DNA from: Eubacterium sp.
GTDB lineage: Bacteria; Bacillota; Clostridia; Lachnospirales; Lachnospiraceae
Length of the DNA stretch: 38,302 nt
Direction: 5' to 3'
Assembly: GCA_017433295.1 (NCBI GenBank)
Contig: JAFRHL010000052.1
Location: 1 to 38,302 of the forward strand
The notes beneath the pieces are model-generated. The model was not told the origin of the DNA. It saw only the letters and a list, made by a program, of their open reading frames with translations, and searched no databases. Position numbers and translations under genes: made by a program. Positions 13,741 through 38,147 of the stretch are shown piece after piece (position 1 is the stretch's first letter; the number at the start of each line of letters is the position of its first letter).

Positions 13741-15006
13741 ATGGATTATATAAAAATCATTCCCAGGCTCCGCCCGGAGCATATTCTTAAAGACGCGGCC
13801 TATTATGACAACTGCGGGGCGGATGAACTTTACTATTATGATGCCCGGTCCTTCGAGGACGGGCAGGAAGAAGATGTTAAAACCATCAAGGCCATCTGCC
13901 GTGAAGCGGACATTCCCTTAAATGTCATGGCAAAGGTGCTTCGTTTTGAAGATGTAAAGAAAATGTTTTATGCCGGGGCAAAAAGGGTTATCATTGATAC
14001 AGAGGGTTACGATAACCTGGAAGCTGTTAAGGAGGCTTCCGATCGTTTCGGAGCCGACCGGATCTGGCTCTATCTGAGGGAATCCGATTATGAGAAGGCC
14101 CTGATCCGGGCCAGAAGGGCTGTGGAGGAGGAAGGCTTCGGAGGCATTGTGCTGGCGGGAGATCCTTCGGATCAAGCCTATGTCAGGACAGCAGATTTTC
14201 TGAAAATCAAGGTAAAGGTTCCCGTTACAGTCATGGCCGGGGCCGGGGACGACAATGCCACGGCGGATATTCTTAAGATGACCATGGGCGACGGGATCAT
14301 TCTGGATGGTGACGATGCCTTTGACTGTATGGATCTTAAGCAGGCCCTGAAAAAGCAGAGCCTACCCATGAATCTGTATGAAAGCGCCATTTCCTTTGAA
14401 GACTTTAAGCTTAACAATGACGGTATGATCCCATGTATCACTCAGGACTATAAAACCGGCCAGGTTCTGATGCTGGCTTACATGACAAAGGAATCCTTTG
14501 AAAAAACCATCGCTTCCGGTAAAATGTGCTACTACAGCAGAAGCCGGCAGGAGCTATGGACCAAAGGAGATACCTCCGGTCATTATCAGTATGTCAAGTC
14601 CCTGTCCATCGATTGTGACAATGACACGATCCTGGCTAAGGTGGCCCAGATAGGCGCCGCCTGTCATACAGGAAACCGCAGCTGCTTCTACCGTGATCTT
14701 GTGAAAAAAGAGTATGATGATACAAATCCCCTGCTGGTTTTCGAAGAAGTATATAATACCATACTGGACAGGAAAGACCATCCCAGGGAGGGATCCTATA
14801 CCAATTATCTCTTTGATAAGGGCGTAGACAAGATCCTCAAAAAGGTAGGGGAGGAAGCCACGGAGATCGTGATCGCGGCAAAGAATCCCGATTCCGATGA
14901 ACTCAAATATGAGATCTGTGATTTCCTGTATCACATGATGGTACTGATGGCCCAGCAGGATGTCAGCTGGAAGGAGATCACCGACGAGCTGGCCACAAGA
15001 CATTAG
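13741..15006 (+). CDS. hisIE: HisIE bifunctional enzyme with a degenerate N-terminal HisF-like domain
   Basis: 421 aa in three parts. Residues about 1-215 look like a HisA/HisF TIM barrel ([20 protein letters not shown] then GADELYYYD). The HisF catalytic Asp of the IIPCLD motif is replaced by Arg and the phosphate loops are poor, so the domain is probably not catalytic. Residues about 220-335 are phosphoribosyl-AMP cyclohydrolase HisI ([36 protein letters not shown] with the metal-binding residues). Residues about 338-421 are phosphoribosyl-ATP pyrophosphohydrolase HisE ([29 protein letters not shown]). GGAG at 13731-13734 supports the ATG at 13741. hisH, hisA, hisF and hisC are absent from the operon. 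The next gene starts 20 nt downstream. Confidence 0.9.
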
Positions 15007-15026
15007 AAGGAATTATCACAATCTAT

Positions 15027-17273: not shown

Positions 17274-18436
17274 TCAGAAAAAAAACCTTGAGCAAAGCAT
17301 TATGCTGTCTATTGCTTTCCCTGTCCGTTTTTTGCGGTTTTTCTTTGGAGGGAAGGGCCGAAAGCGCTCCCAAAAAAGAAGAGGATGTCATTTATTTCGG
17401 CTATGCCCAGGTGAAGGATTATGGTTCCTTTGCCCAGGTCCTTCTGGATATCGCCAGGAACCTGGTGGAGGAGGGAAGTATTCAGGAAAGCTTTCTGGCA
17501 AAATATGAGAATGCAGATTTCGAGGCGGATCTCAAGGATGGAGATACCAGAAAGCTGTGGAATGATATCTGTGACGCAAATGTGGAAGGGGCAAGATACC
17601 GCTTCAGGCGGGAAGCCTTTTTTGACATGAATGAGATGGAGGAGGCAGATTATCCGGAAATGGCAAACAGGGATGACGTGGATATCACCTTTGCCATGGG
17701 TACGGCGCCGGGTGTTTATCTGGCGGAAAATGAAAAGAAAAACAGGTTTATGTGCATCTATGCTGCTGATCCCGTGGCTTCGGGCATTGTAGATCCCCAT
17801 AACAGGAATGATCATGCATTTGCCACATTGGATCTTACCTCCTATGGCAGGCAGCTGGATGTGGGATACCGTTTCCTGCATTTTAAAAAACTGGGTGTAG
17901 TTTATGAGGATTCGGAAGATGCCTATGCCTATTCGGCCATTTCCTTTGTGGAGGAAAAGTCCCGGGAGCATGGCTTTGAAGTGGTTTACGAGCATGTGAA
18001 GGAACCGGTTTCGGATGACGATTATGAAAGATATTACAAAGAGCTGAAAGAAGCCTACCGCAAACTTGCGGATGCCGGAATCGACTGCCTTTACGTTACG
18101 ATATGTTCCATCGATTATGATAGCAGAATGCAGGAGCTTTTAGATGACTGCATTATACCCGCCGGCATAAAGACCCTTGCACAGGATGATTTCGCGCCCC
18201 TGGCAGGCGGCGCCCTTTTCGGCGTCACCTTAAGTGACGCAGGGGAGACGGCAGACCATGTCGTAAGGCAGATAAAAAATTTTGCGGAAGAAGGTACTCC
18301 TTTCCGGGAACTGGACATGGTATGCGAGGCAACTCCCAAAATAGGAATCAATGTCACCACTGCCGACCGGATCGGCTTTGCCCTTTCCTTTGAAGACCTT
18401 CAGATGGTGGATAAAGTGTTCAGGAGCGGGAAATAA
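17270..18436 (+). CDS. Substrate-binding-protein-like secreted protein
   Basis: 388 aa with a Sec signal peptide (about residues 1-30: basic start, hydrophobic core LSKALCCLLLSLSVFCGFSL, likely cleavage after GRA). The mature part looks like a two-lobed type-1 periplasmic-binding fold of the ABC substrate-binding family PF04392: DVDITFAMGTAPGVYLAENE, ADPVASGIVDP, FKKLGVVYEDSEDAYAYS, GIDCLYVTICSID and PAGIKTLAQDDFAPLAGGAL. There is no lipobox Cys directly after the signal and no ABC permease or ATPase nearby, so it probably works with the sensor-MFS protein that overlaps it (ATGA) or acts as a receptor. The ligand is unknown. GGGAGGG precedes the ATG. Confidence 0.7.
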   Translation: MIRKKTLSKALCCLLLSLSVFCGFSLEGRAESAPKKEEDVIYFGYAQVKDYGSFAQVLLDIARNLVEEGSIQESFLAKYENADFEADLKDGDTRKLWNDICDANVEGARYRFRREAFFDMNEMEEADYPEMANRDDVDITFAMGTAPGVYLAENEKKNRFMCIYAADPVASGIVDPHNRNDHAFATLDLTSYGRQLDVGYRFLHFKKLGVVYEDSEDAYAYSAISFVEEKSREHGFEVVYEHVKEPVSDDDYERYYKELKEAYRKLADAGIDCLYVTICSIDYDSRMQELLDDCIIPAGIKTLAQDDFAPLAGGALFGVTLSDAGETADHVVRQIKNFAEEGTPFRELDMVCEATPKIGINVTTADRIGFALSFEDLQMVDKVFRSGK

Positions 18437-18443: not shown

Positions 18444-18481
18444 GGCTGTCCTTTTTTGTTGATGACAGGACAGCCCTTTTT
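18444..18481 (+). terminator. Hairpin and T-run between the binding-protein gene and the NRPS gene
   Basis: GGCTGTCC (18444-18451) pairs with GGACAGCC (18468-18475), followed by CTTTTT. The NRPS ribosome binding site starts 10 nt later, leaving no room for a promoter. It is either a partial terminator or an attenuator that sets NRPS expression. Confidence 0.75.
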
Positions 18482-18503: not shown

Positions 18504-21500
18504 ATGTCAGAAAAACCTGAAGCCTTAAGAGAAAAGACAGATGCCCCGTCTCTGCTCGACCAGATAAGGGTCAGCATGGAGGATTTTGCTTCTCGCAGGG
18601 CTCTTGTTTATAAAGAAAAACAATACACATATAAAGAACTGGAGCAGATAACGGGCAGGCTGGCGTCCCGGTTAAAGGCAGCAGGGGCAGGACGGGGAAA
18701 AACCGTCTCGATCCTGGTTCCCAGATGCGAATATATCACCATAGCTCCCCTGGGCGTGCTGAGGACCGGCGCGGCCTATCAGCCCCTTGACAGTTCCCAT
18801 CCGGCAGAGCGGATCAATCTGATGATAGAGGATGCTCATACCTCCCACGTGATCGTTTCAAAAGAGCTTGAACATCTTTTAAATCCGGATATTTTTTCAG
18901 ACGGCAGAAAAAAACTCTATATAGAAGACATAGAAGACATCGCCGCTCCGGCTGTGGACGCCGTCCCGGTCTGGGAGGAGGAAAAAGGAGAGGATACCTT
19001 TGTCGTCCTCTATACCTCCGGCTCAACGGGCAGGCCGAAGGGTACAGAGCTTTTGCGAAAAAATGTAAACTCCCTTCTGGAATGGTACAAGAGTTATTAT
19101 GAGGTGGACCGGAACTGCCGTATGGCCCAGCATGCCAGCTTTGTTTTTGACCTGGCCATCGTGGAAAGTCTGCTGCCCCTGGCCTCGGGAGCCGCTGTCT
19201 ATATTATTCCGGAGGAGATCCGCAGGGATATCCTTCTTTTGAACCGGTTTTTTGAGGAAAACAGGATCACCCATACCTCCATGACAACCCAGCTTGGCAG
19301 GCAGTTTGCCAGGAATATCCGTAACACTTCTTTAAGGCATCTGACGGTGGGAGGAGAGGCCCTGATGTCTGTTGACCCGCCGGAGGGCTACATGCTGCAT
19401 AACGGATACGGTCCGACAGAATGCACGGTATTTGTGACCATGTTCCCGGTTTTGAAGCATTATCAGGGAGTCGTTCCCCTGGGCAGGCCCCTGCCGGAGG
19501 TCGCCATTTATATTCTGAATGATAAGGGAGAACAGGTAGGACAGGGCCGGACAGGGGAACTATGTATCGCAGGACCCCATGTAGGCAGGGGCTACCTTAA
19601 TAACCGGGAGCTCACTGACAAGGTTTATACTGTAAATCCCTTTTCCAAAGATCCGGATTATGACAGGCTCTACCATACCGGCGATCTGGCCAGGAAAGGT
19701 GAGGATGGGAATATCGAATATATGGGCAGGGCGGACAGGCAGGTCAAAATACGGGGCTTCCGGGTGGAACCCGCAGAGATAGAGGCCCTGCTTAAGGAGT
19801 TTAAAGATATCAAGGACGCTGCGGTCTCAGCCCCCCTCCTTTCCGGAGGGCGTATCCTGGCCGCCTATTATCTGTCGGAGGAGCCCCTGGATGAAGGGCT
19901 GCTTAAAGAATATATTCTGAAGGAAAAACCCTCCTATATGCTCCCGTCTTTTTTCATTCACCTTGATCGCTTCCCCTTAAATACCAACGGTAAGGTGGAT
20001 TATGACAAATTACCCCTTCCTGTCCCCAAAGAGGAAGGAATTTATGAAGCCCCTGCCGACTCTGTGGAGAAAGGGCTGGCCGCTCTTTATGAGGAGATTC
20101 TGGGAATTCCGCAAGCGGGACGAGGCACGGATTTTCTCCGGCTGGGAGGTAATTCGCTTCTGGCAGCGATCCTATTGTACAGAATCTATCAGACATTTTC
20201 CTGCCATATCAGTATCAGGGATATTATGGAATATCCGACCATTGCCGGGCTGGCCTCCCGTATTAAGAGCCTGACTGATGGAAGAGAGGAAACAGGCAGC
20301 CGGGAATTGTTAATTCCGGAAAAGCTGCCCATCCGGGATGAATACCAGGTAAGCGCTGCCCAGGAGAGGGTCTATACCGCCCAGGCGATGCTTCCCCCGG
20401 ATGATGATACCTACCTTTTACAGCTTAAAGTACGTACAAAAGGAGAGTTTTCCAGAGAAAAAACCAGGGAAGTGCTTATGGCATTATTTGAGCGCCATGA
20501 AAGTCTGCGGACAGGCTTTTATATGACTGACGGGGGGTTGGTGCAGAAGATTTCCGGTCCCGGGGAAAGTTTGCGGATGGTGGAAAAGTCGGAAAGAAAG
20601 ACTTTGTCAGACAAGTCGCCGGTGACCTTCCTGTTAAATGAACCACCTTTGTTTGCCTGGCATTTTGAAAAGAAGGAACTGACATTTTTCTGGCATCATA
20701 TCATCAGTGACGGGAAGAGCAATCTCTTATTTGCCAGGGAGTTTGCTGCCCTCTATACAGGCCAGTGTGTCCCGTCTGCTGCATTTCACCAGAAAGAATT
20801 TGCAGCCCTGGAGAAGACGGAGCTGTACGGGATCCGAAGGGCAGAAAAACGTAAGAAATGGAAGGACCTGTCTAATGAATTCCGTGATACCGGGGAGACA
20901 GAGCTTCCCTCCGACGGGGTATGGGAGCCTTCCTTCCCGAGGGAAGCCGGACACGTGGTCAGGGTCCTTTCCGGGGATCTGTCGGAGAAAATCATGGCTT
21001 TTTGCAGAAAAGAGGGCTGTACGCCCTACATGCTTCTGCTGGCAGTCTTTTCTCTCGTGATCAGCCGCTATTCCAGGCAGGATGAAATCATTCTGGGCAC
21101 AGTGATGGACGGTCGAACCATCCCCGGAAGCGAGGACCTGCAGGGAATGTTTGTAAATACAGTTCCTCTTTTCCTTAAGGTCAGTGAGAAGGAGACTTGG
21201 GATACATTTTTGAAGAAAATAAAGGACAGGGTCCTCTTTGCCCTGGAGAACCAGGATGTCCCCCTGGAGGACATAGCCGGTGATTTCTCTGAAATGGGAG
21301 CTTTTGCACGCACAAAGCACGGGCATCTCCTTTTTAATGTCCTTTTTGTCATGCAGAGCCTTGACAGAAAACTGCCGGACATGACCGGGGAAGAAACGCA
21401 TCTTGTGTTTGAGCCGGCAAAGAAGGCCATGTATGACCTGACCCTGGAGACGGAAATAAGGGACGGCTGTTTCTGTTTCGACTTTGAGTATGACGGGAAG

Positions 21501-24500
21501 CTGTTTTTACGGTCATCCATGGAGACCATGGCGGACCATCTGCTGACCCTTCTGGAGAACTGCCTGCAGGCAGGAGAGGAGGAGCTGTCGGCCCTTTCCA
21601 TGATCAATTCGGAGGAAAACAGGAAGCTTCTTCATGCTTTTGCGGGAAAGGACCTGCCTGATACAGGGAATACCGTGATCAGTCTTCTTGCAAAAAACGT
21701 GGAAACCCAGCCTGATAAAACGGCGGTGGTGATCGGAGAGCAGGAGCTGACCTACAGGGAGCTCTGGGAGAGATCCGGGTCACTGGCCGGAAAACTTGGC
21801 CGGCTCATAAAGGCAGACAGGGGATCCCGGGAGGAAGAAAGACGGGTGGCCGTCATTGCCAAACGGTCTTTGTCCATGGTGGTTTCTCTCTGGGCTGTTT
21901 TAAAGAGCGGATGTGCTTATGTTCCCATACTGCCGTCCTATCCCGGAGACCGTATCAGTTACCTGCTGTCTGACAGCAGACCTTCTGCCGTGATCCTGGC
22001 GGAGACGGACATACCGGACGAAGTCATGGAGAAGATCCATGAGACCGGATTACCGGTGATCACAGTAAAGGATTCCCGGCAGGCCATCCCGGAAAAGACC
22101 GGAGGAGAATGCCGTAAGTTCAGTCCCGACCGGCCCGCATATCTTATCTATACATCGGGAACCACAGGCCGGCCCAAAGGAGTCGTGGTGGAGCACAGGC
22201 AGCTTGCCAATATGCTTGATGGCTATAACGATATTTACCGTCTGGGAAAAGAAGATACAGTCCTTGCCTTTGCGGAATTTGTCTTTGACCAGTCCGTATG
22301 GGACATGTTCCATATACTTACCGTGGGGGGGACCCTCTGTCTGATTCCTGAAGAAATCGTCAGGGATCCGGAGGCATTGACGGATTATTGTGAAGAGAAA
22401 AAGGTTACCGCAGCCTCCCTTACACCGGCCTATTTAAGGCTTCTTGATCCGGAAAGGTTTCATAGTCTTAAGCTTTTGGATGTGGGTGGAGAGGCTCCGG
22501 ACCGGTCCCTGCTCTTAAAATGGTGCGGGGCCAGGAGAGTATTCAACACCTACGGACCAACGGAAACCACGGTAAACGCCACCAGCTATCTTTTTTCCGG
22601 AGACAAGGGCCTTAAGGAAAACGTTCCCATCGGGCGCCCTGTGCCCGGTACCCGCATTTATATCATGAACGGGGACAGATTAAGCGGCCTGGGGGTTCCG
22701 GGAGAGCTCTGCATTGCCGGCAGGCAGGTGACCAGGGGCTACTTTAACAGACCCGGGCTGACTGCCGAAAAGTATGTAAGAGATCCATTTTCAGAGGGCA
22801 GGATGTACAGGAGCGGAGACCTGGCAAGACTGATGGCGGATGGAAATGTGGAATTTATGGGACGTCTTGATGATCAGGTCAAGTTTTTGGGCTACCGGAT
22901 AGAAACCGGAGAAATTGAAGCGGCCATCCGGTCTTTGGAAGGGATCGCCGATGCCGCTGTTGTAATAAAGAAGGATGCAGGCGGGGAAAAACGGCTGTGC
23001 GCATATTATGTGTCCAAGGAGCATACAGGGTCAACCAGTGAAAAGTATATCAGACAGTCCCTGAAGGATATTCTGCCGGCCTACATGGTGCCGGGCTTTT
23101 TCGTAAGGCTTGATAAGCTGCCGCTGACAGTGAACGGGAAGCTTGATAAGCGGGCTCTGCCTGACCCGGTCATCCGGGAGGAAAGTGGTTATCTGGCTCC
23201 CCGCACGGTGCTGGAAAAGGAAATGGAACAGGTCTTTTGCACGATCCTGGGGACTGACAGGTGCAGTATAGATGCAGACTTTCTGGAGATGGGTGGAGAT
23301 TCCATAAAGGCCATCGCCGTGGTATCCGCCCTCAGGAAAAGAGGATACCGGCTGGAGGCAGCCACTGTCTTAAAGGAAGGAAGCATAGAGCGGCTTTCCC
23401 GTAAGATGGGTCAGGGCAGAGAAGAGTCCTTTCAGGAATACAGCCGGGTAAAACCCGTTCCCGTCATGAGACAGTATTACCGGTCAGACTTTTATAACCC
23501 CTCCTGGTACAATCAGTCAGCTGTATTACGTCTGCCTGATGGACAGGTAAATCAACGGGCGTTGGAGAATGCCTTATACGGTCTGATTCTCTGTCATGGT
23601 ATGCTCCGGCTGATACAGACAAAGTCCTATGACGAGATGGCAGGAAAAGCAGAAGAAGGAGGTCTCTGTATCCGGAAACCGGAGGAAATGAATCCGGTGG
23701 ACCTGCCTGTCTGTCGTGATCTGCCGGAAAATGAGAGGAGATCTCTTTTCGGATCCCTGCAGGCCCGGATGGATCCCATGAAGGGAGAGGTCATGAAGGC
23801 TGCCCTCTTTATAAACGGGCAGACAGCCAGACTCTATCTGGCCTTTCATCATCTGGTGATCGACCAGGTGTCCTGGGGGATCCTCTGTGATGACCTGAAT
23901 ACCCTGTATCATGCTGCTGTGACCTGTCCGGAAGAGGACGGGATCCATGCTGCCCGGCAGGCCCTGATCACAAACAGAACGGTATCCTTTGGAGAATGGT
24001 CAGAAAAGCTGTGGCTTTATGCTTCTTCAGATGCTTTCCGCAGGGAAAGAGAATGGTGGCAGGACCAGCACCTCATCTATGACAAAGAAAAGAAAGGCAT
24101 GGAGGCTTTCCTTAAAGGTTACAGGACAAAAGAAGATGCGGGGCCGGGCTATGGACACATAAGGCGGACCCTTTCTTCCGGGATTTCCGGGAGGCTTTTG
24201 TCCATCTCCAAAAAACGTTATCATACAGGTCTCCATGTGATCCTGCTGGCTGCCTTTTGCAGGGCTGTCAGGGAAGAAAAAAAGAACAGGGATCCTTTCC
24301 CCGTGACCCTTTTCCTTGAAAGCCACGGCAGGGGAAATCTGATGGTAGCCTGTGACAACAGCCGGACCGTGGGCTGGTTTACATCGGTATTTCCGGTGCT
24401 GATCCGGGAAGCGTCAGGGCAGGAAGAACAGATCGTTTTCGTCAAGGAAACTCTGGCGGGAATTCCCAATTTCGGAATCGGCTACGGACTCCTCTATGAA

Positions 24501-27500
24501 GCACCCGTGGGAAGGGGGGCTGTGCTATTTAACTATCTGGGAGAAGAGCAGCCGGTCCGGACAGACCAGATCAGTCTGACGGCAGAAGAAGCCGGACCGG
24601 AGGCAGACCCCCTTAACGGAGAAAAGGGGACGGTGTCCCTTGACATGAGGATGACCCCGTCAGGCCTTATGATCCACTGCCTCTATGACAAGATTTATGA
24701 CAGAGAAAAGCTTGACAGGCTGCTGGATGTTTTCTGCGGTCAACTTGAAGAATTTGCCGCAACAGACAGGGAGGATAAGAGGATCTACACGCCGTCGGAT
24801 TTTTGCCATGGAAAGCTTATGGATCTTCACGACTGGGCGGTGGCAAAAAGGATGATCCAACCGGAAAGGATCCAAAGCTGTCTGGGACTGACGCCCATGC
24901 AGCAGGGAATGCTTTACCATTATTTTATGGAGCCTGAAAGCAGGGCCTACTATTATCAGGACCGGCTTATCCTTTACGGACCATGGAAGCCTGCCTGCTT
25001 TGCAGCGGCACTGGGATTGCTGTCCATGCGCTATGACGCGCTGAGACTCCGCTTCATCAGTGCCGGCTTAAAGGAACCCTGGCAGGTGGTCCTTAAGGAT
25101 GATACTGACTTATTTAAGGAAACCGGTGAGGGACTTCTTAAAGCAGCTCGTATAAACAGCGGGCCCGGGAAGGCAAGATGTTCAAACAATGAGTCCGGGG
25201 ATACGGATGTCTGTTTCAGCCTCTCCCGTGAGACACCCTTCCATGTCATGGTGGGTGCCCGGGATAAAAACAGGACCGAGCTTTTGATCTCTTCCCACCA
25301 TATTATTATCGACGGGTGGAGTTTTCCGATCCTCATAGAAAAACTTATGGACTATTACAGGAGACTGTCAGAAGGAGAAGAGGAAAAGACCCTGCGGAAG
25401 GATGTAAAAAGAGAAGCGAAAGAATCCTGTTCCTTTGCTGACTACCTGAGGACCTATGAAGATTATGATAAAAGGAGGGGGCTTAGTTACTGGAAGAGCT
25501 ATCTTGAAGGAATTGAAGAAGGCTGCGGATTGTCGGCCCTTTATGGAGAACAGGATAAGCCTGCGAAAATGACTTCCCTTTCTTTTCAATTCGAGAAAAA
25601 TACGGAGGAGCGGATAAAGGAATTTACGGTCAGACACCATCTTACGGAAAGCTGCTTTTTCGCTGCCCTGTGGGGAATCCTTCTGGGATTTGAAAATGGG
25701 GGCAGGGATGTGGTTTTCGGGGAAACTGTGTCCGGACGGAATGTGGACCTGACCGGGATTGATGAAGCGGTGGGAATGTTCGTTAATACTCTTCCGGTGC
25801 GGATACGCTGGGATGAGGACACAGACCTTGCGGCTCTCTTTGAAAAGAAACAGGAGGAAAATCTGGGGAGAATACCCTTTGAAAGGAGCGCCTTAAGTGA
25901 AATCGGAGCTGCGGCCGGATTTTCGGCAGGAAATCTGGTCCGGACAATTTTCGCCTTTGAAAATTATCCGAAAAAGCAGAGGATCAATGATTACAGCTTC
26001 CTCCCCGGCAGGGAGGAAATTGATCAGGAAGCTGCTTTTATTGTAGACAAGGGCGACGGTTTTTCCTTTACCCTTCTCTATAATAGTGCCCTGTATCCGG
26101 ATGATTACATGGAACTGGTCGCAAAACGTCTTGAAAACCTCGCGCTGCAGATCACCGCAGGACAGGCTGGAAAAGTCTGTGATCTTGAGAGGATCACAGA
26201 GGAGGAAAAAGCCCTGATGGTGGGGGAGATCTGTGGGACCGGGAAGGATTTTCCCGCAGAAAGCTTCCTGGATATGCTGAAAAAACAGGTCAGGACCGAT
26301 CCGGAGAAAACAGCCCTTTTCATGGAGGGAAGGACAGTAAGCTACGGCCAGCTCTGGCGTGCCTGCCTGAGACTGTCCGCCCGGATCCCGGGTCGTGGTG
26401 AGCGGTTCCTTGTCATAATGGCTGACAGGAGCATTGAGATGATCCTGGCCATGATCGCCGCCTTTATGGCGGGAGCTGCTTATGTCCCCCTGGATCCTGC
26501 TTATCCCAAAGAGAGGATCGCCTTTATCCTTCAGGACATCAGACCCTGCGGGGCATTTTATTTAAGACAGCAGACCCCGGCATCCTCCTCAAGTACAGAG
26601 GAAGAGATAAAAGGTCTGTTTGCAAAGGAAGGGATCCCACTGATCAGCCGGTCCCTGGATACTTTATTAAAGGAGAGCGGCGATGATGGACAGTTATGTT
26701 CCGACGGGAAAATGTCTTCTGACCCCAACCGTATCGCCTACATGATCTATACCTCCGGGACCACGGGCAGGCCCAAGGCTGTCATGATAGAACACCGGGC
26801 CCTCGCGGATATGATCCATGTCCACGAAGAATTTTTCGGAAGCCTCAAAGACGATGTGGTGATGCTCATGTCCAATATAGTTTTTGACGCCTCTGTTCAG
26901 CAGATATTTCCCGCCCTGGCCCAGGGAGGAAGGGTGGCTGTTATGCCCGCCCGGTTTATGGGCAGCCCAAAGGATATGGCAGCTTATTTCCGCCGGGCCG
27001 GCGCAACCTTTTTCGGAGCCACCAATGCCCTTTTAAAGAATCTTACGCCCTCGGATTTCGGATCCTTCCGGGTCATCAGTATCGGCGGAGATGCCGCAGA
27101 TCCGGCTTTATTTAAAGCATGGGCACCCCATACCGAACTGCTGGTAAATGATTATGGCCCGACGGAAGTTACTGTTCATGCAGCGGCGGAAAGGTTTATG
27201 GGAGAAGAAGAAAAAACTGTCCCCATAGGCAGGCCCTACCTGAATAAAAGGATTTATATTCTGCAGGACGGCAGGCTTTGCGGACCGGGACAAAAAGGAG
27301 AAATCTGTATCGGGGGAGAGGGCCTCGCCCGGGGCTATTATCACCGCAAGGAGCTTACGGAGAAGGCTTTTGTAAAAAATCCCTTTGACGGCGGCATCAT
27401 GTACAGGACCGGCGACCTGGGGATATTCAGGCCGGACGGGAAGCTTATCTATGAAGGTCGCCGGGATTCTCAGATAAAAATCCGGGGCTATCGTATAGAA

Positions 27501-28838
27501 GCGGGAGAAATTGAGGAACATATTAAGGAGATAAAGGGTGTTTATGATACTGTGGTGATGAGCCGTAAAAAGAAGGGAAGGGATGCCTTCCTGACGGCTT
27601 ACATTACCTGCCGGGAGGATCTTGCCCCGGAAAAGATAAAGGAACACCTGGAAAAGAGCCTTCCGGCCTACATGGTTCCCTCCTATATCATGCGGATTGA
27701 AAGCTTCCCCCTTAACCTGAGCGGGAAAAAGGACCTTGCCAGACTCCCGGATCCTTTGCGGGATCACAGGGCCGTTTCGGATAAAGCAGAGGATTATTTT
27801 GAAGAACGGATCATAAACCTGTTTAATTCAATTTTAGGAATTGAGGGAACAGGCAGGAGGGATTCCTTCTTTGAGCTGGGCGGAAATTCTCTGGACCTGA
27901 TGCGGCTGATGGCAGGCCTTTCCGACTTCCGGTTAAAGGCTTCTGATGTGCTTACCCACCCGACTCCGGCAGCGCTGGGAAGGCTCTTAAAGGATGATTT
28001 CAGGCGAAAGGAGAGGGGCAGCTGCTGCCATTTACTGAAAGAAGGAGCGTCTGATGTGCCTGCGATCTTCTGCATCCCTCCGTCCGGAGGAATGAGCATG
28101 TGCTATCTGGAGCTTTTGGGGCTGCTTGAATATACAGGCCCGGTCTACGGCTTTACCGATGAAAGATACAGGCTGTTTGACCAGATGACCATGGAGGAAA
28201 TGGCGTCTTTCGATCCGGAGAAGAGGAATCTCTGGCCCGGTACTTTAAAAGCCTACAGGAAAGAACTTGACCGGCTCTTTAAGCCCGGAGATATCCTCAT
28301 GGGTTATTCCCAGGGAGGAAATGCGGCTTACATACTGGCCGGGCTGCTGGAAAGCCGGGGCAAAGACCCCGGGGCACTTATCCTGCTGGAATCGGTTCCT
28401 CTCCATAAAACTCTGTGTGAGGATATCCGGAGGGAGAACCTTATGGACAGGCTCCATGAGGCAGAGGAGATCTTTTTCGGCAGGAAGACCGGTTTTCTTA
28501 CAGAAGGAAAAAGACCCGGAGAGAATATGACGGTGAGGGAATATCTTGCCCTCTGTCTTAAAGCCCATGGAGAAGAAGGGGAAGGAGCCCTGCTGAAGGC
28601 TTTTTATGAGACATATCTGGTCTATTCCTCCGCCTGTGCCTTTCCTTTATTCTCTGAAGGGAAAGTGAAAGCCCCGGTCTATTCTGCCCTGCTGGGCTCC
28701 ACTGGCGGTACGGCAGAGGGAGAGACCGCTTTCATAAAAGGAAATGAGGAAGACCATTTTGTATTTCTTTCTAAATACAAAGTGGAACTGGTGAAACTGA
28801 TACAAAAATGGATCGATAATACATTACGGGGAGAATGA
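18504..28838 (+). CDS. Three-module non-ribosomal peptide synthetase
   Basis: 3444 aa, domain order A-T-C-A-T-E-C-A-T-TE. A1 about 20-500 (YTSGSTGRPKG near 170), T1 with Ser551 (LGGNS). C1 has HHIISDG at 731-737. A2 has YTSGTTGRPKG at 1216, T2 has Ser1600 (MGGDS). An epimerase follows with HHLVIDQVSW at 1782 and RTVGWFTSVFPV. C2 has HHIIIDG at 2265. A3 has YTSGTTGRPKA at 2749, T3 has Ser3129 (LGGNS). The C-terminal thioesterase has GYSQGGN with Ser3269. The expected product is a tripeptide with a D-residue at position 2, released by TE as an acid or ring. By-eye specificity codes are DLVSTGGVFK, DQWSDGTVNK and DAQGSGDVHK; I recognise none, so the residues are not predicted. All three T domains need the phosphopantetheinyl transferase, perhaps that at 37494. 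Start: GGAG 9 nt before the ATG at 18504. No tailoring enzymes are adjacent. Confidence 0.96.
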   Translation: MSEKPEALREKTDAPSLLDQIRVSMEDFASRRALVYKEKQYTYKELEQITGRLASRLKAAGAGRGKTVSILVPRCEYITIAPLGVLRTGAAYQPLDSSHPAERINLMIEDAHTSHVIVSKELEHLLNPDIFSDGRKKLYIEDIEDIAAPAVDAVPVWEEEKGEDTFVVLYTSGSTGRPKGTELLRKNVNSLLEWYKSYYEVDRNCRMAQHASFVFDLAIVESLLPLASGAAVYIIPEEIRRDILLLNRFFEENRITHTSMTTQLGRQFARNIRNTSLRHLTVGGEALMSVDPPEGYMLHNGYGPTECTVFVTMFPVLKHYQGVVPLGRPLPEVAIYILNDKGEQVGQGRTGELCIAGPHVGRGYLNNRELTDKVYTVNPFSKDPDYDRLYHTGDLARKGEDGNIEYMGRADRQVKIRGFRVEPAEIEALLKEFKDIKDAAVSAPLLSGGRILAAYYLSEEPLDEGLLKEYILKEKPSYMLPSFFIHLDRFPLNTNGKVDYDKLPLPVPKEEGIYEAPADSVEKGLAALYEEILGIPQAGRGTDFLRLGGNSLLAAILLYRIYQTFSCHISIRDIMEYPTIAGLASRIKSLTDGREETGSRELLIPEKLPIRDEYQVSAAQERVYTAQAMLPPDDDTYLLQLKVRTKGEFSREKTREVLMALFERHESLRTGFYMTDGGLVQKISGPGESLRMVEKSERKTLSDKSPVTFLLNEPPLFAWHFEKKELTFFWHHIISDGKSNLLFAREFAALYTGQCVPSAAFHQKEFAALEKTELYGIRRAEKRKKWKDLSNEFRDTGETELPSDGVWEPSFPREAGHVVRVLSGDLSEKIMAFCRKEGCTPYMLLLAVFSLVISRYSRQDEIILGTVMDGRTIPGSEDLQGMFVNTVPLFLKVSEKETWDTFLKKIKDRVLFALENQDVPLEDIAGDFSEMGAFARTKHGHLLFNVLFVMQSLDRKLPDMTGEETHLVFEPAKKAMYDLTLETEIRDGCFCFDFEYDGKLFLRSSMETMADHLLTLLENCLQAGEEELSALSMINSEENRKLLHAFAGKDLPDTGNTVISLLAKNVETQPDKTAVVIGEQELTYRELWERSGSLAGKLGRLIKADRGSREEERRVAVIAKRSLSMVVSLWAVLKSGCAYVPILPSYPGDRISYLLSDSRPSAVILAETDIPDEVMEKIHETGLPVITVKDSRQAIPEKTGGECRKFSPDRPAYLIYTSGTTGRPKGVVVEHRQLANMLDGYNDIYRLGKEDTVLAFAEFVFDQSVWDMFHILTVGGTLCLIPEEIVRDPEALTDYCEEKKVTAASLTPAYLRLLDPERFHSLKLLDVGGEAPDRSLLLKWCGARRVFNTYGPTETTVNATSYLFSGDKGLKENVPIGRPVPGTRIYIMNGDRLSGLGVPGELCIAGRQVTRGYFNRPGLTAEKYVRDPFSEGRMYRSGDLARLMADGNVEFMGRLDDQVKFLGYRIETGEIEAAIRSLEGIADAAVVIKKDAGGEKRLCAYYVSKEHTGSTSEKYIRQSLKDILPAYMVPGFFVRLDKLPLTVNGKLDKRALPDPVIREESGYLAPRTVLEKEMEQVFCTILGTDRCSIDADFLEMGGDSIKAIAVVSALRKRGYRLEAATVLKEGSIERLSRKMGQGREESFQEYSRVKPVPVMRQYYRSDFYNPSWYNQSAVLRLPDGQVNQRALENALYGLILCHGMLRLIQTKSYDEMAGKAEEGGLCIRKPEEMNPVDLPVCRDLPENERRSLFGSLQARMDPMKGEVMKAALFINGQTARLYLAFHHLVIDQVSWGILCDDLNTLYHAAVTCPEEDGIHAARQALITNRTVSFGEWSEKLWLYASSDAFRREREWWQDQHLIYDKEKKGMEAFLKGYRTKEDAGPGYGHIRRTLSSGISGRLLSISKKRYHTGLHVILLAAFCRAVREEKKNRDPFPVTLFLESHGRGNLMVACDNSRTVGWFTSVFPVLIREASGQEEQIVFVKETLAGIPNFGIGYGLLYEAPVGRGAVLFNYLGEEQPVRTDQISLTAEEAGPEADPLNGEKGTVSLDMRMTPSGLMIHCLYDKIYDREKLDRLLDVFCGQLEEFAATDREDKRIYTPSDFCHGKLMDLHDWAVAKRMIQPERIQSCLGLTPMQQGMLYHYFMEPESRAYYYQDRLILYGPWKPACFAAALGLLSMRYDALRLRFISAGLKEPWQVVLKDDTDLFKETGEGLLKAARINSGPGKARCSNNESGDTDVCFSLSRETPFHVMVGARDKNRTELLISSHHIIIDGWSFPILIEKLMDYYRRLSEGEEEKTLRKDVKREAKESCSFADYLRTYEDYDKRRGLSYWKSYLEGIEEGCGLSALYGEQDKPAKMTSLSFQFEKNTEERIKEFTVRHHLTESCFFAALWGILLGFENGGRDVVFGETVSGRNVDLTGIDEAVGMFVNTLPVRIRWDEDTDLAALFEKKQEENLGRIPFERSALSEIGAAAGFSAGNLVRTIFAFENYPKKQRINDYSFLPGREEIDQEAAFIVDKGDGFSFTLLYNSALYPDDYMELVAKRLENLALQITAGQAGKVCDLERITEEEKALMVGEICGTGKDFPAESFLDMLKKQVRTDPEKTALFMEGRTVSYGQLWRACLRLSARIPGRGERFLVIMADRSIEMILAMIAAFMAGAAYVPLDPAYPKERIAFILQDIRPCGAFYLRQQTPASSSSTEEEIKGLFAKEGIPLISRSLDTLLKESGDDGQLCSDGKMSSDPNRIAYMIYTSGTTGRPKAVMIEHRALADMIHVHEEFFGSLKDDVVMLMSNIVFDASVQQIFPALAQGGRVAVMPARFMGSPKDMAAYFRRAGATFFGATNALLKNLTPSDFGSFRVISIGGDAADPALFKAWAPHTELLVNDYGPTEVTVHAAAERFMGEEEKTVPIGRPYLNKRIYILQDGRLCGPGQKGEICIGGEGLARGYYHRKELTEKAFVKNPFDGGIMYRTGDLGIFRPDGKLIYEGRRDSQIKIRGYRIEAGEIEEHIKEIKGVYDTVVMSRKKKGRDAFLTAYITCREDLAPEKIKEHLEKSLPAYMVPSYIMRIESFPLNLSGKKDLARLPDPLRDHRAVSDKAEDYFEERIINLFNSILGIEGTGRRDSFFELGGNSLDLMRLMAGLSDFRLKASDVLTHPTPAALGRLLKDDFRRKERGSCCHLLKEGASDVPAIFCIPPSGGMSMCYLELLGLLEYTGPVYGFTDERYRLFDQMTMEEMASFDPEKRNLWPGTLKAYRKELDRLFKPGDILMGYSQGGNAAYILAGLLESRGKDPGALILLESVPLHKTLCEDIRRENLMDRLHEAEEIFFGRKTGFLTEGKRPGENMTVREYLALCLKAHGEEGEGALLKAFYETYLVYSSACAFPLFSEGKVKAPVYSALLGSTGGTAEGETAFIKGNEEDHFVFLSKYKVELVKLIQKWIDNTLRGE

Positions 28839-28840
28839 GT

Positions 28841-30640
28841 ATGAATGCTTCTACCGGAAAAAAACGGAGTCTGGTAACAAAATTTATGATCATGTTCATA
28901 GTATTCGGAATCTTTTTTCTGATCATGAACGCCCTTTATACCTTTTCAAATCAGACATTATCCTATCATAATAAGTGCAAAAATAATCTGAAAAATATCA
29001 CCAGATATCTGGATACGCTTATCAGACAGGATGGGAAAGAATTTGTCGAGCTTAAAGAATACTTCCATGAGAATTATTCACAGATGCGGATTCCCGCTGA
29101 TTATTCAGGAGATTATCATCCTGCCCTTGCGCATTTTGAGGAACTCTTTTCGGAGAATTATCCGGACAAAGAGTATGGAAAGGATATATTATTCAAGGAT
29201 CTTGAAGGAGACACAAAAAAGGCCTATGCCGAGTACAGGCTTGAGTACTGGATCTCAGTGTTTACCAGTGCCACCGAAAGCTTTGATCTAAGCTATACTT
29301 ATTTCTTATATCCGGATGAGGAGCCTGTTATGTACTATCTCATTGACCCGGTTCCCGATGCGGTCACAATCGATGGAAAGAAGTATATTTCCCTGGGCTT
29401 TCACGGTGCGGAAGATTCGAAAAAGTATCCTATGATGTGGGAGGCCTGGCATACGGGAAAACAGCCTGAAAGCTTCGATATATTTGATAATGAATACGGC
29501 AATACCTATGCTTATTATTCCCCGGTTATCATTGATGGCGAAAAGATCGGCCTGGTATGTGCTGACCTGAATGTGGAGACAGTGACCAGGGATATTCTCA
29601 TGGCAGTGGTCAATCAGACCCTGGGCTCCCTCATCGTTTTCATTGTCGGTGTCCTTATCATCATTGCTTTAATAAAGAAGATCTTTTTGAACCGGCTGCT
29701 GCGGCTGGAGAAAAGTGTTGCCCTTTACGCGAAAGAAAAGGATGCGGCCATCAGCACCTCCATCATGGAGTCCGAACAGGGTAATGATGAGATCCGCAGT
29801 CTGTCCGATCAGTTTGCGGGGATGATCATTGAGATTACGGATTACATGGAAAACCTTAAGCGTATTACGGCAGAAAAAGAAAGGATCGGAGCCGAACTGA
29901 ATGTCGCAACCCAGATCCAGGCTGATATGCTGCCGAGAATCTTTCCGCCCTTCCCGGAAAGAAAGGAATTCTCCATCTATGCCACCATGAATCCTGCCAA
30001 GGAGGTGGGCGGTGATTTCTATGATTTCTTCCTGGTGGATGATGACCATATCGCCCTGGTTGTCGCCGACGTCTCGGGTAAGGGAATTCCTGCCGCCCTC
30101 TTTATGGTGATCGCAAAAACCCTGATTAAAAACAGGACCTTAATGGGAGAAAGTCCTGCCGAGGTTCTTAAAAATGTCAATAATCAGCTCTGTGAGGGGA
30201 ATGAGGCGGAAATGTTTGTTACAGTCTGGCTGGCGGTGATCCAGATCTCCACCGGGAAAGGTATTGCCGCGAATGCCGGTCATGAACACCCGGCTCTCCG
30301 GCGCAGGGATGGACACTTTGAGCTGGTAAAATACAGGCATTCACCGGCTGTGGCCACCATCGAAGGCATCAGGTACAGAGAACATGAATTTGAGCTTCAT
30401 CCGGGAGATATGATCTTCCAGTATACGGATGGTGTGTCAGAGGCTACGAACTCCAATGATGAGCTTTTTGGAGAAGAACGTCTGGTCCGCGCACTGAATC
30501 TGAAACCCGAGTCAGAACCCGAAGACCTGCTTTGTACGGTCAGGAAGGAAATTGATGCTTTTGTCGGGGAAGCTCCTCAGTTTGATGATATTACCATGCT
30601 GGGCTTTGCCTACTATGGCAGGGAAGATGATGGGGTCTGA
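28841..30640 (+). CDS. Membrane-bound SpoIIE/RsbU-type serine phosphatase with extracellular sensor
   Basis: 599 aa. A membrane segment (about 12-36), an extracytoplasmic Cache-like domain (about 37-250) and a second membrane segment (about 252-278) precede a HAMP-like and coiled linker (about 280-350). The PP2C-type SpoIIE domain follows (about 355-595) with metal-binding EVGGDFYDFF, VADVSGKGIPAALFM, NAGHEHPALR, YTDGVSEATN and FDDITMLGF. Such proteins dephosphorylate STAS-domain anti-sigma antagonists in partner-switching pathways. The ATG at 28841 lies 2 nt after the NRPS stop and 7 nt after GGGGAG; an overlapping ATG at 28835 is possible. This tight coupling links signalling to peptide production. 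No STAS protein is in the window. Confidence 0.88.
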   Translation: MNASTGKKRSLVTKFMIMFIVFGIFFLIMNALYTFSNQTLSYHNKCKNNLKNITRYLDTLIRQDGKEFVELKEYFHENYSQMRIPADYSGDYHPALAHFEELFSENYPDKEYGKDILFKDLEGDTKKAYAEYRLEYWISVFTSATESFDLSYTYFLYPDEEPVMYYLIDPVPDAVTIDGKKYISLGFHGAEDSKKYPMMWEAWHTGKQPESFDIFDNEYGNTYAYYSPVIIDGEKIGLVCADLNVETVTRDILMAVVNQTLGSLIVFIVGVLIIIALIKKIFLNRLLRLEKSVALYAKEKDAAISTSIMESEQGNDEIRSLSDQFAGMIIEITDYMENLKRITAEKERIGAELNVATQIQADMLPRIFPPFPERKEFSIYATMNPAKEVGGDFYDFFLVDDDHIALVVADVSGKGIPAALFMVIAKTLIKNRTLMGESPAEVLKNVNNQLCEGNEAEMFVTVWLAVIQISTGKGIAANAGHEHPALRRRDGHFELVKYRHSPAVATIEGIRYREHEFELHPGDMIFQYTDGVSEATNSNDELFGEERLVRALNLKPESEPEDLLCTVRKEIDAFVGEAPQFDDITMLGFAYYGREDDGV

Positions 30641-30697
30641 GTCTTTAAGAAAGAAAATTTATTACGAAAAGTCAGGCAATTGTATGATCAGTTAATA

Positions 30698-30726
30698 TTT
30701 ACGAAACATTTAATATGTGGTATATT
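30698..30726 (+). promoter_or_regulatory. Candidate promoter for the unknown-protein/rsbW-like unit
   Basis: TTTACG (30698-30703), a 17-bp spacer and TATATT (30721-30726), with TGG just before the -10 (extended type). It lies 27 nt upstream of the start codon at 30754 and would make this a transcription unit separate from the NRPS operon. Confidence 0.55.
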
Positions 30727-30753
30727 TAAAAGGTGACAAAAGGGAGGTATCAT

Positions 30754-31386
30754 ATGCAGACCAATAAGATTGAAGTAGATAAGTCCGGCCGGGGTAGAGA
30801 AGAGGTGTTAAATGAAACCTCGAAATTTGCCCTCTATAATGAGCTGGACAAAAAAACATCCTTTCATCTGCGTTTACTGGCGGAGGAGACACTGGGCATG
30901 ATCAATGCCATAACAGAGGATTTTAAGGCCCTTTTCTGGCTGGAGACAACCGGGGAGAATACCTGCCTTTTACACCTCACTGTTCATACTGATATGGACT
31001 ACGAAAAGAAGCAGCATTTTATGGATGTCTCGGCAAACCATGAAAATATGGCTGCCAGAGGGTTTATGGCAAAGATCGGTGAGATGATAAAGGATGCCTT
31101 GTTTAATCTCAATGAGTATGCCAATATCCAGACAGAGTATGGCGGTCCCCTTCTTTATGGCAGTATGGGAATGGGGGATATTGAAAGCATCAATACCAAC
31201 TCCATGATTTATATGTGGTCCATGAAGCGTTATCAGGACGGCCTCTCGGAAAACCGGGAAGAAGACCAGGAGGCTTCTGAGGCATGGGATGAGCTGGAGA
31301 AGTCTATTGTTGCCAGCATCGCGGACGATGTTCTGGTGGGCATCCGGGGCGATGAGGTGGAACTGATCATAGAAAAGAAGTTATAG
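30754..31386 (+). CDS. Uncharacterised protein, possible divergent GHKL ATPase
   Basis: 210 aa, cytoplasmic, no signal or membrane segment. I do not recognise the family firmly. The segment LRLLAEETLGMINAITEDFK resembles the N-box helix of histidine-kinase-like ATPases (the Glu and Asn positions), but clear G-boxes are not visible. A Gly-rich stretch, YGGPLLYGSMGMGDIE, lies in the middle. Its position between a PP2C phosphatase and an RsbW-like kinase supports a place in the same partner-switching circuit. The ATG at 30754 follows AGGGAGG; an in-frame start at 30733 has no site. Confidence 0.6.
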   Translation: MQTNKIEVDKSGRGREEVLNETSKFALYNELDKKTSFHLRLLAEETLGMINAITEDFKALFWLETTGENTCLLHLTVHTDMDYEKKQHFMDVSANHENMAARGFMAKIGEMIKDALFNLNEYANIQTEYGGPLLYGSMGMGDIESINTNSMIYMWSMKRYQDGLSENREEDQEASEAWDELEKSIVASIADDVLVGIRGDEVELIIEKKL

Positions 31387-31415
31387 GGGTCAGGAATTAC
31401 AGGAAGGAAAGCTCA

Positions 31416-31826
31416 ATGAATACTTTTAAAACACAGGCAGATCTTAATAATCTGTCAGAGGTTCTCGCCTTTGTGGATGAGCAGGTGGAAAGATATTTTT
31501 GTTCCATGAAGATCCAGATGCAGATCGATATTGCGATAGAAGAAATATTTGTTAATATAGCGAATTATGCCTATGGAGACGGGACCGGCCCTGTGGAGAT
31601 CCGCTGCCTTGTTGACGGAGATCCCCCATGTCTTGCAGTGACATTTATTGATGAGGGAATCCGGTACGATCCCCTGGCAAAGGAGGATCCGGATACTACC
31701 CTGTCGGCAGACGAAAGGCAGATCGGCGGCCTGGGGATTTTTATGGTTAAAAAATCCATGGACAGTATGGAATATGAATACAAAGACGGTAAGAACATGC
31801 TGACCATCCGGAAGAAGCTTTGTTGA
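31416..31826 (+). CDS. RsbW-like anti-sigma / serine kinase (HATPase)
   Basis: 136 aa, a single GHKL ATPase domain of the RsbW/SpoIIAB type (HATPase_c_2). The N-box is IDIAIEEIFVNIANYAY, the G1 motif is FIDEGIRYDPL and the G2 region is QIGGLGIFMVKKSMDSMEYE. Relatives bind a sigma factor or phosphorylate a STAS antagonist; the phosphatase at 28841 would reverse that reaction. Its cognate STAS protein and sigma factor are not adjacent, so the output is unknown. It is separated from the upstream gene by 29 nt, with GGAAGGAAAG before the ATG. Confidence 0.88.
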   Translation: MNTFKTQADLNNLSEVLAFVDEQVERYFCSMKIQMQIDIAIEEIFVNIANYAYGDGTGPVEIRCLVDGDPPCLAVTFIDEGIRYDPLAKEDPDTTLSADERQIGGLGIFMVKKSMDSMEYEYKDGKNMLTIRKKLC

Positions 31827-33339: not shown

Positions 33340-33389
33340 GATAACTTAATTTTTACGATACCAAAGGGCATGTCAGTCAGGTGGCGGTT

Positions 33390-37493: not shown

Positions 37494-38147
37494 ATGGCTG
37501 AAAACATAAAAGTTTTTTACGGGAATATCTCTGAGCACGACCAGTCTTTCTGGAATAGTTGGAAAGAGATGCTTCCCTGGGAAGAACGCAGGACAGCAGC
37601 TGACCGGTTTCGTGCCGTGCCGGATAAAAAGCGGTGCATCGGAGCCGGTATTCTTTTATATAAAGTACTGAATATTTATAATATTACTGATTTTTCCCTG
37701 GGACAGGGCAAATACGGCAAACCCTATCTGATCAACACGCCGGACCTGCACTTTAATATATCCCACAGTGGAGATTATGTCCTGTGTGCTGTCGGGACCA
37801 GTCCTGTGGGTGTGGATGTGGAGCAGTATGACCATGGGAATCCGGGCATTGCAAAGCATTTTTTTACAGGAAAAGAATACCGGTGGGTCATGGATTTACC
37901 AGATGACCGGGATTGTCAGGATCTTCGGGATAGCCGGGAACGCTTTATCAGGCTCTGGACCATGAAGGAGAGCTATTGCAAGATGAAGGGCCTTGGTTTA
38001 AACCTTGCCCTTTCGGATTTTGAGATCCTCCCGGATGAGGGGGTATACCCTGCAGGGATTCAGATGGCTGAATTCCTGCTCCCGGGATATCACGTATCAG
38101 TATGCTCAGAGCAGGAAACAGCTTCGGCAATGAAACGGTTGTTTTAG
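37494..38147 (+). CDS. Sfp-type 4'-phosphopantetheinyl transferase
   Basis: Transfers phosphopantetheine from CoA to the Ser of carrier domains; 217 aa, normal for the Sfp/Gsp class. Seen are the substrate-pocket segment GKYGKPYL followed by LHFNISHSGDYVLCAVG, the Mg2+-binding GVDVEQYD, and FIRLWTMKESYCKMKGLGL with the catalytic WTxKES..K pattern. It is the only such enzyme in the window and the obvious candidate to activate the three T domains of the NRPS at 18504, although it is transcribed with the suf genes (11-nt gap) about 9 kb away. It could also serve other carrier proteins. Confidence 0.93.
   Translation: MAENIKVFYGNISEHDQSFWNSWKEMLPWEERRTAADRFRAVPDKKRCIGAGILLYKVLNIYNITDFSLGQGKYGKPYLINTPDLHFNISHSGDYVLCAVGTSPVGVDVEQYDHGNPGIAKHFFTGKEYRWVMDLPDDRDCQDLRDSRERFIRLWTMKESYCKMKGLGLNLALSDFEILPDEGVYPAGIQMAEFLLPGYHVSVCSEQETASAMKRLF

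What the first reader, a model, noticed from the sequence alone, without database searches (positions are those of the whole stretch)
18504..31826. Tripeptide NRPS tied to a sensor-transporter and a partner-switching circuit
The NRPS (A-T-C-A-T-E-C-A-T-TE) is packed between a sensor-MFS fusion plus a binding-protein-like gene upstream and a membrane PP2C phosphatase with an extracellular sensor downstream (2-nt gap). An unknown protein and an RsbW-like kinase follow. There are no tailoring enzymes or resistance genes. Seen: domain order, motifs, gene spacing. Known: SpoIIE/RsbU phosphatases and RsbW kinases work together in partner switching. Inference: the peptide is an extracellular signal that is exported, sensed and fed into a sigma-factor switch. 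The cluster would then be an autoinducer-like system rather than an antibiotic locus.
Basis: partly seen in the sequence, partly recalled or inferred. Interest (0 to 1): 0.8.

Follow-up and report, generated by a model that had tools for sequence, protein, structure and literature searches.

The report
Tripeptide synthase with built-in sensing module
A gut bacterium carries a small-peptide factory locked in one gene block with an exporter, a binding protein and a membrane sensor; related blocks elsewhere keep the binding protein, and usually the sensor and exporter, but carry different factories, which suggests a family of chemical-signalling systems that has not been tested in the laboratory.

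Summary
The NRPS (ATG 18504-28838; A-T-C-A-T-E-C-A-T-TE) lies in a tight block: sensor-MFS, ABC_sub_bind-like binding protein (SBP), NRPS, Cache-sensor SpoIIE phosphatase. The unknown protein and RsbW accompany only 2 of the 6 loci, lying upstream in the second.

New here: the SBP is a distinct family. Its 41 loci found across the phylum usually have the sensor-MFS beside it, not the permease-ATPase pair of ordinary relatives. Nearby enzymes differ by clade: NRPS; aminomutase plus D-Ala-D-Ala-ligase-like; alanine racemase; GH3; formyltransferase-like; GNAT-like. NRPS-linked SBPs form one clade. No such enzyme was matched in controls (20 ordinary SBP loci; 65 SpoIIE loci).

Best reading: a synthase-exporter-receptor module for a self-made small amide or peptide, read out by partner switching in this order. 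Signalling is inferred, not shown. A sigma-factor output is unsupported: only SigF and one taken as SigG pass the SigB/F/G cut-off, and the candidate STAS partner is on another contig.

The parts
15027..17273 (+). Sensor fused to MFS transporter (748 aa; about 340-aa membrane sensor part, then MFS)
   Evidence: Pfam MFS_1 at 398-701; nearest NCBIfam models are mostly efflux types, all below cut-off; 54-61% identical in the 4 relatives, 53% in G1484
17270..18436 (+). Exported binding protein, divergent ABC_sub_bind relative (SBP)
   Evidence: family profile hits 6hni 2.9e-18, 3lkv, 3lft; signal-peptide-like N-terminus by eye; 57-60% identical in the 4 relatives, 58% in G1484
18444..18475 (+). 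Hairpin followed by a T run between SBP and NRPS genes (possible attenuator or processing site)
   Evidence: -16.8 kcal/mol, z -1.8, 11 of 200 shuffles fold as well; 67-nt gap here, whereas the relatives have overlapping or closely spaced genes
18504..28838 (+). Three-module NRPS, A-T-C-A-T-E-C-A-T-TE
28835..30640 (+). SpoIIE/PP2C phosphatase with extracellular Cache-like sensor
30754..31386 (+). Unknown protein: divergent anti-sigma-kinase fold (RsbW/SpoIIAB/SiaB-like)
31416..31826 (+). RsbW-like HATPase_c_2 kinase
   Evidence: Pfam 79.8 bits; E-x3-N, DxG, GxG boxes
37494..38147 (+). Sfp-type phosphopantetheinyl transferase (candidate NRPS activator)
   Evidence: Pfam ACPS 54 bits plus AASDHPPT_N 35 bits; homologue directly after SpoIIE in RGIG4385

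Best explanation
The block is a synthase-exporter-receptor module. The NRPS makes a short peptide (aa1 - D-aa2 - aa3, released by the TE). The MFS half of the fusion exports it. The exported binding protein, a relative of Tyr/Phe/Trp binders but without their ABC permease, captures it outside and presents it to the sensor half of the fusion and/or the Cache sensor of the SpoIIE phosphatase. SpoIIE then dephosphorylates a STAS protein opposed by RsbW-type kinases (the adjacent RsbW and perhaps the RsbW/SiaB-fold unknown). The same SBP, usually with the sensor-MFS, is coupled elsewhere to other small amide, peptide or amino-acid-modifying enzymes, so the synthase is the exchangeable part. Shown: gene content, order, conservation, fold classes, co-variation of SBP clade with enzyme type. 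Inferred: product identity, export, binding, and signalling.
For: MFSsens-SBP-NRPS-SpoIIE in 6 of 6 loci incl. the window with different flanks (his operon; RsbW; a second SpoIIE; an antiporter gene). Of 72 SpoIIE loci the 4 with near-full-length matches at 59% identity or more are all NRPS-linked. SBP family: clear score gap (193 bits or more vs 68 or less; 241 vs 114). Of 41 loci, 33 have the sensor-MFS (1 split, 1 decayed), 3 the sensor only; of 31 assessable intact sensor-MFS loci 30 have an enzyme within three genes, the 3 sensor-only loci none of these. SBP tree: NRPS rows one clade 100/100; enzyme labels 11 changes vs shuffled mean 25.8, min 21. Controls: 20 ordinary ABC_sub_bind loci have permease and ATPase (19 and 18 of 76 neighbours), none of the 76 matched the enzyme references by BLAST, none of these families among the 25 of 52 shown; 65 SpoIIE loci without SBP: 0 with such an enzyme. 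Middle A-domain code DQW[S/M]DGTVN kept in 6 of 6 while modules 1 and 3 vary.
Against: No experiment or expression data. The class 'enzyme' was drawn up after seeing the loci; of the 30, 19 rest on clear family matches, 7 are formyltransferase-like with at best weak Pfam support (L170 below cut-offs, L224 none), 4 are weak GNAT-like genes. MFS-enzyme coupling has only 2 independent contrasts, p 0.5; L230 has the MFS and no such enzyme (two radical SAM genes on the opposite strand). Label clustering on the tree partly reflects plain common descent. SpoIIE proteins alike over nearly full length also occur without NRPS (L126, L162, L225 at 44-51%; L027 at 38%, with no SBP). Known SBP relatives bind free amino acids (PMC6816091, passages), so nutrient sensing is possible. 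RsbW and unknown stay with 2 of 6 NRPS loci; no STAS was found in the window; no dedicated SigB-type sigma. Only 2 of 24 genus genomes hold the SBP.
Confidence: 0.52

Rival explanations
1. The sensors read an outside cue (amino acids or other nutrients) and the NRPS is the output: an environment-gated secondary metabolite, exported by the MFS, with no feedback through the peptide.
For: SBP relatives bind Tyr/Phe/Trp; SpoIIE sensor resembles Cache domains including amino-acid chemoreceptors Tlp3 and PctC; SBP plus sensor also occurs with no such enzyme (L124, L161, L169), and SBP plus sensor-MFS in L230.
Against: SBP subclades follow the enzyme type, not expected if all sense common nutrients, though common descent gives part of it; 3 of the 4 loci without enzyme also lack the MFS.
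Confidence: 0.25
2. Antibiotic or bacteriocin-like locus: the peptide is a weapon, the MFS the efflux immunity, and SBP/SpoIIE a drug-sensing self-protection circuit.
For: MFS nearest to efflux models; pairs of peptidase-type ABC exporters (NHLP type by recall) follow SpoIIE in RGIG3585 and Tb.RUG.133; SBP relatives sit in radical-SAM loci with similar exporters (L212, L216, L217) and near contractile-injection-type genes (L129, L168, L169, L214, L215, L218, L220).
Against: No dedicated resistance or target-protection gene recognised in the block; alanine racemase, formyltransferase-like or GH3 cassettes do not look like antibiotic pathways (judgement).
Confidence: 0.15
3. Metallophore or nutrient-scavenging peptide retrieved by the SBP.
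For: Export MFS plus extracellular binding protein; weak NCBIfam hits to rhizoferrin and staphylopine-type exporters.
Against: No ABC importer beside the SBP in the six NRPS loci, in contrast to the 20 control loci; no metal-binding tailoring domain seen.
Confidence: 0.05

Closest known systems
RsbU/RsbV/RsbW and SpoIIE/SpoIIAA/SpoIIAB partner switching
   Same: SpoIIE-family PP2C phosphatase and HATPase_c_2 kinase with intact catalytic boxes
   Different: Membrane Cache sensor on the phosphatase; no STAS or SigB-type sigma gene in the window; tied to a peptide synthetase
SiaABCD of Pseudomonas aeruginosa (PMC7647112, abstract and section list read)
   Different: No SiaC-like gene seen; the GGDEF gene at 33381 has only one weak match (34% over 113 aa, over 8 kb away in L014) in the relatives' flanks; Sia has no synthetase or SBP (recalled)
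Pvf (pvfA-D) signalling of Pseudomonas (PMC10194917, abstract and section list read); recalled: its signal is made by NRPS-type enzymes
   Same: A signal system encoded by one gene cluster
   Different: No SBP, sensor-MFS or partner switch there (recalled); enzymes unrelated
LuxP/LuxQ with LuxS (AI-2), recalled
   Same: Periplasmic-type binding protein presents a self-made signal to a membrane sensor
   Different: Histidine kinase output, separate synthase locus, no MFS, different SBP family
CD0873 / TrpX-type aromatic amino-acid SBPs (PMC6816091, passages read)
   Same: Binding-protein family and the DPV region
   Different: Those belong to amino-acid importers; this family lacks their permease and ATPase neighbours and matches them mainly in its C-terminal two thirds

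Membership tests
Partner-switching module (RsbU/V/W type) | SpoIIE-type PP2C phosphatase | tested here: met
   161 bits vs cut-off 25; motifs intact
Partner-switching module (RsbU/V/W type) | HATPase_c_2 kinase encoded with it | tested here: met
   window 31416-31826, but in 2 of 6 NRPS loci only
Partner-switching module (RsbU/V/W type) | STAS antagonist substrate in the locus | tested here: not met
   none on the window contig; 4 STAS matches elsewhere incl. a free 99-aa one at C37, 54-61% identical to STAS proteins near SpoIIE, RsbW or unknown-type genes in L020, L021, L023
Partner-switching module (RsbU/V/W type) | Dedicated SigB-type sigma target | tested here: not met
   two hits over the SigBFG cut-off: SigF in the spoIIA operon and one at C22 taken as SigG; genome 91% complete
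ABC_sub_bind amino-acid SBP (CD0873/TrpX type) | Sequence/fold of the family | tested here: met
   profile E 2.9e-18 to 6hni; single protein gave no Pfam hit at E 0.01
ABC_sub_bind amino-acid SBP (CD0873/TrpX type) | Adjacent BPD_transp_2 permease and ABC ATPase | tested here: not met
   neither beside the SBP in the window; ABC_tran 1 of 100 case neighbours and BPD_transp_2 not among the 25 of 108 families shown, vs 18 and 19 of 76 control neighbours
NRPS cluster | A, T, C domains with TE and epimerase, core motifs intact | tested here: met
   TE by motif, Pfam score below cut-off
Autoinducer (quorum-sensing) system | Product is secreted and sensed by the producer | not testable with these tools
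   inferred from gene content only

The most novel reading that the evidence does not exclude
The NRPS locus is one member of a phylum-wide, plug-and-play family of chemical-communication modules: one conserved SBP receptor, usually with a sensor-exporter, paired with exchangeable synthases (tripeptide NRPS, beta-amino-acid dipeptide ligase, GH3 amide synthetase, racemase/N-acyl or N-formyl enzymes), each SBP clade tuned to one chemistry, and wired to partner switching in this order and found beside contractile-injection or RiPP-type genes in other lineages. Within the NRPS branch the middle D-residue is fixed while the flanking residues vary, giving lineage-specific dialects.
Probability: 0.38. 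Interest if true: 0.92.

Novelty: new variant of a known kind. Interest (0 to 1): 0.74.

Why it matters
If true, gut anaerobes of a family with few described small-molecule signals (recalled) use a modular receptor-exporter chassis into which different synthases are fitted. It would give a genome-readable key (SBP clade) to find new signals and turn many small biosynthetic genes beside it into testable signal synthases. It would also tie peptide synthetases to serine/threonine partner switching. I found no report of that link in three full-text searches, read as listings only: 25 of 31 papers listed; only PMC9540692 had both the NRPS term and SpoIIE, one mention each; 6 papers, none with 'nonribosomal peptide'; 0 papers.

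Tried and rejected

Limits: the enzyme references were taken from the case loci, which favours finding them there. The Pfam scan of neighbours used 100 neighbours of 29 of the 41 loci, picked by me from the list within two genes; it left out 12 loci (5 NRPS loci, near-duplicates, cut ones), the NRPS itself, many short ORFs and some large or opposite-strand neighbours. Only the first 25 of 108 and of 52 families were shown. Of the 9 radical SAM members there, one is a HemN/HemW-type gene (L124) and two are the opposite-strand genes of L230. L130, L213, L221, L223 and L227 are cut short by contig ends.

Full report
What is there. The window is one whole contig (C42) of a 2.9-Mb, 91% complete genome. 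After a histidine operon (hisIE ends 15006) and a 20-nt gap come a 748-aa sensor-MFS fusion (15027-17273), a 388-aa exported protein (17270-18436), the NRPS (ATG 18504 behind AGGAG, to 28838) and a SpoIIE phosphatase (28835-30640). After 113 nt follow an unknown 210-aa protein (30754-31386) and an RsbW-like ATPase (31416-31826), then a CHAP/Big_2 protein and a GGDEF protein. A 4'-phosphopantetheinyl transferase lies at 37494-38147. An E domain in module 2 (HHxxxDxxSW, FNYLG) followed by a C domain predicts a D residue in the middle of a tripeptide (established NRPS knowledge, recalled).

Conservation. A scan of the named genome collection with SpoIIE gave 72 loci. The four with near-full-length matches at 59% identity or more, L014-L017 (MAGs of two roe deer gut samples, goat rumen and one Tb.RUG isolate), all have the NRPS directly before SpoIIE. 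Fetching upstream shows MFSsens-SBP-NRPS-SpoIIE in 4 of 4. A later search added G1484, a different genus of the same family, with the same four genes. So 6 of 6 loci, counting the window, keep the order, with different flanks: his operon (window), RsbW (RGIG4385), a trmD-like gene plus a second SpoIIE (RGIG3585, Tb.RUG.133), an antiporter gene (G1484); RGIG4930 starts at a contig end. Less similar SpoIIE proteins that also align over nearly full length occur without an NRPS: L126, L162 and L225 at 44-51% (all with the SBP) and L027 at 38% (none). In the genus only the window genome and one other of 24 carry the SBP: the block is accessory. The unknown protein and RsbW are present in the window (downstream) and in RGIG4385 (upstream, with one opposite-strand ORF between them); tblastn finds neither in the fetched flanks of the other four, but does find a 40-residue RsbW-like fragment downstream of the RGIG4385 transferase gene. 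SpoIIE sensors are 46-53% identical, the linker and phosphatase parts 72-78% (which compared L111, L112, L113 and G1484).

NRPS codes. Nine specificity positions (placed by motif, recalled numbering) give for module 2 DQW[S/M]DGTVN in 6 of 6; module 1 (DLVSTGGVF, DPVSVGGQL, DVESTAGYV, DLATTGGLF, DLVTTGDLY twice) and module 3 (DAQGSGDVH, DAQGSGDLH, DASDLGDVH, DAQICGDVN twice, DAYSVGDVN) vary. The core D-residue therefore seems fixed and the ends vary by lineage. No substrate is claimed.

The receptor family. The SBP has no Pfam or NCBIfam match alone, but its family profile hits 6hni (E 2.9e-18), 3lkv and 3lft, binding proteins found with Tyr, Phe and Trp respectively (PMC6816091, passages). 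Profile searches show a sharp gap between the family and ordinary ABC_sub_bind proteins (193 bits or more against 68 or less; 241 against 114). Members were found in 10 of 397 family genomes, 5 of 391 class genomes, 12 of 398 phylum genomes and 15 of 392 order genomes, own genome included each time and some genomes drawn more than once. With the four relatives and the window this makes 41 distinct loci.

What sits beside it. Of the 41 loci, 33 have the sensor-MFS within three genes (split into two genes in L123, decayed in L223), 3 have the sensor without MFS (L124, L161, L169), 4 are radical-SAM loci without an adjacent sensor-MFS (L212, L213, L216, L217; an MFS-like match lies about 14 kb from the SBP in the L212 genome) and 1 is cut (L221). 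In the 31 intact, assessable sensor-MFS loci (33 without L223 and the cut L227) the enzymes within three genes are: NRPS 6; lysine-2,3-aminomutase-like radical SAM plus D-Ala-D-Ala-ligase-like ATP-grasp 2 (L125, L127); alanine racemase plus an unknown 478-490-aa protein 3 (L126, L162, L225); other alanine racemase 3 (L215, L218, L219; and BLAST); GH3 2 (L129, L130); clear GNAT 2 (L123, L220); formyltransferase-like 8 (L128 over the Pfam cut-off; L170 below cut-offs; L224, L226, L228, L229, L231 and L232 by 64-72% identity to L170, L224 itself without a Pfam match); weak GNAT-like 4 (L167, L168, L211, L214; L167 without any Pfam hit). That is 30; L230 has none of these. In L127 the sensor-MFS and SBP are one polypeptide. 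SpoIIE lies within three genes in 22 of the 41 loci, all of this order where kinship is told (it is not told for three NRPS relatives, whose records are named Lachnospiraceae); none of the 14 loci outside the order has it in the genes examined. Seven loci lie beside contractile-injection-type genes (L129, L168, L169, L214, L215, L218, L220): eCIS_core in L169 and Pvc16_N in L218 are Pfam matches, the others rest on similarity to those loci, in L214 only on a MORN-type gene, a DUF4280 gene and resemblance by eye.

Controls. Around 20 ordinary ABC_sub_bind genes, 76 neighbours hold 19 BPD_transp_2 and 18 ABC_tran; none matched the enzyme references by BLAST, and none of SpoIIE, HATPase_c_2, radical SAM, alanine racemase, GH3, GNAT or D-Ala ligase is among the 25 of 52 families shown. 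Around 29 of the 41 SBP loci, 100 neighbours hold SpoIIE 10, radical SAM 9 (one a HemN/HemW-type gene, two the opposite-strand genes of L230), alanine racemase 5, HATPase_c_2 5, D-Ala ligase 2, GNAT 2, GH3 1 and ABC_tran 1. Around 65 assessable of 68 SpoIIE loci that lack the SBP: RsbW in 25, STAS in 17, any of the enzymes in 0. So SpoIIE-RsbW pairing is common background in these bacteria; the enzyme link belongs to the SBP module.

Co-variation. In a tree of 40 SBPs the six NRPS-linked ones form one clade (100/100), as do the two aminomutase/ATP-grasp ones (100/100) and the two GH3 ones (100/99); the formyltransferase-like label appears in two places, L128 being nearest to GH3 (92/82). Nine labels on 38 rows need 11 changes against a shuffled mean of 25.8 and minimum of 21 in 300 shuffles. 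Common descent alone would give part of this. Loss of the MFS goes with absence of an enzyme, but only in 2 independent contrasts.

Conclusion. The conserved block plus the swapped-synthase family best fit a self-made-molecule export-and-sense module, read by partner switching here. The chain product, export, capture, phosphatase control is inferred. The closest alternatives are nutrient-gated synthesis without feedback and a self-sensing antimicrobial locus.

Noticed in passing
L129, L168, L169, L214, L215, L218, L220: The SBP/sensor family lies beside extracellular contractile injection (eCIS) type genes in seven loci (eCIS_core in L169 and Pvc16_N in L218 by Pfam, the others by similarity), suggesting that the receptor may govern injection systems in other lineages.
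   Followed up: partly
L212, L216, L217 (also L213): SBP with radical SAM maturases, and in the first three with similar ABC exporters and a GNAT-like gene; in L216 a 111-aa protein that looks like an NHLP leader peptide (recalled resemblance).
   Followed up: partly
L127:7011-10454: Sensor-MFS and binding protein fused in one 1147-aa protein: exporter and receptor in a single chain.
   Followed up: no
L126:1926-3374, L162:10553-12025, L225:11102-12538: A 478-490-aa protein family near alanine racemase; the L126 member has no Pfam or NCBIfam match.
   Followed up: partly
window 18444-18475: Hairpin with a T run between SBP and NRPS genes, where relatives have overlapping or close genes; possible attenuator.
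   Followed up: partly
window 15006-15027: The cluster starts 20 nt after hisIE, so it may be read through from the histidine operon.
   Followed up: no
L113 and L115, upstream of the MFS gene: A second SpoIIE phosphatase (711 aa; dCache and HAMP in L113) sits directly upstream of the sensor-MFS in two NRPS loci.
   Followed up: partly
L015:12687-12806: A 40-residue RsbW-like C-terminal fragment lies downstream of the transferase gene in RGIG4385, which also has a full RsbW upstream; possibly the trace of a rearrangement.
   Followed up: no
L120 (own genome C30:5000-22000): Repeated adenylate-forming-enzyme-like and hydrolase-like genes, a MATE-like protein with an HATPase_c_2 match, and proteins with many MGCDQ/Cys repeats; a shortened SpoIIE with an in-frame TGA nearby.
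   Followed up: no
L022:5408-8419: The unknown anti-sigma-kinase-like protein is the C-terminal part of a 1003-aa protein.
   Followed up: no
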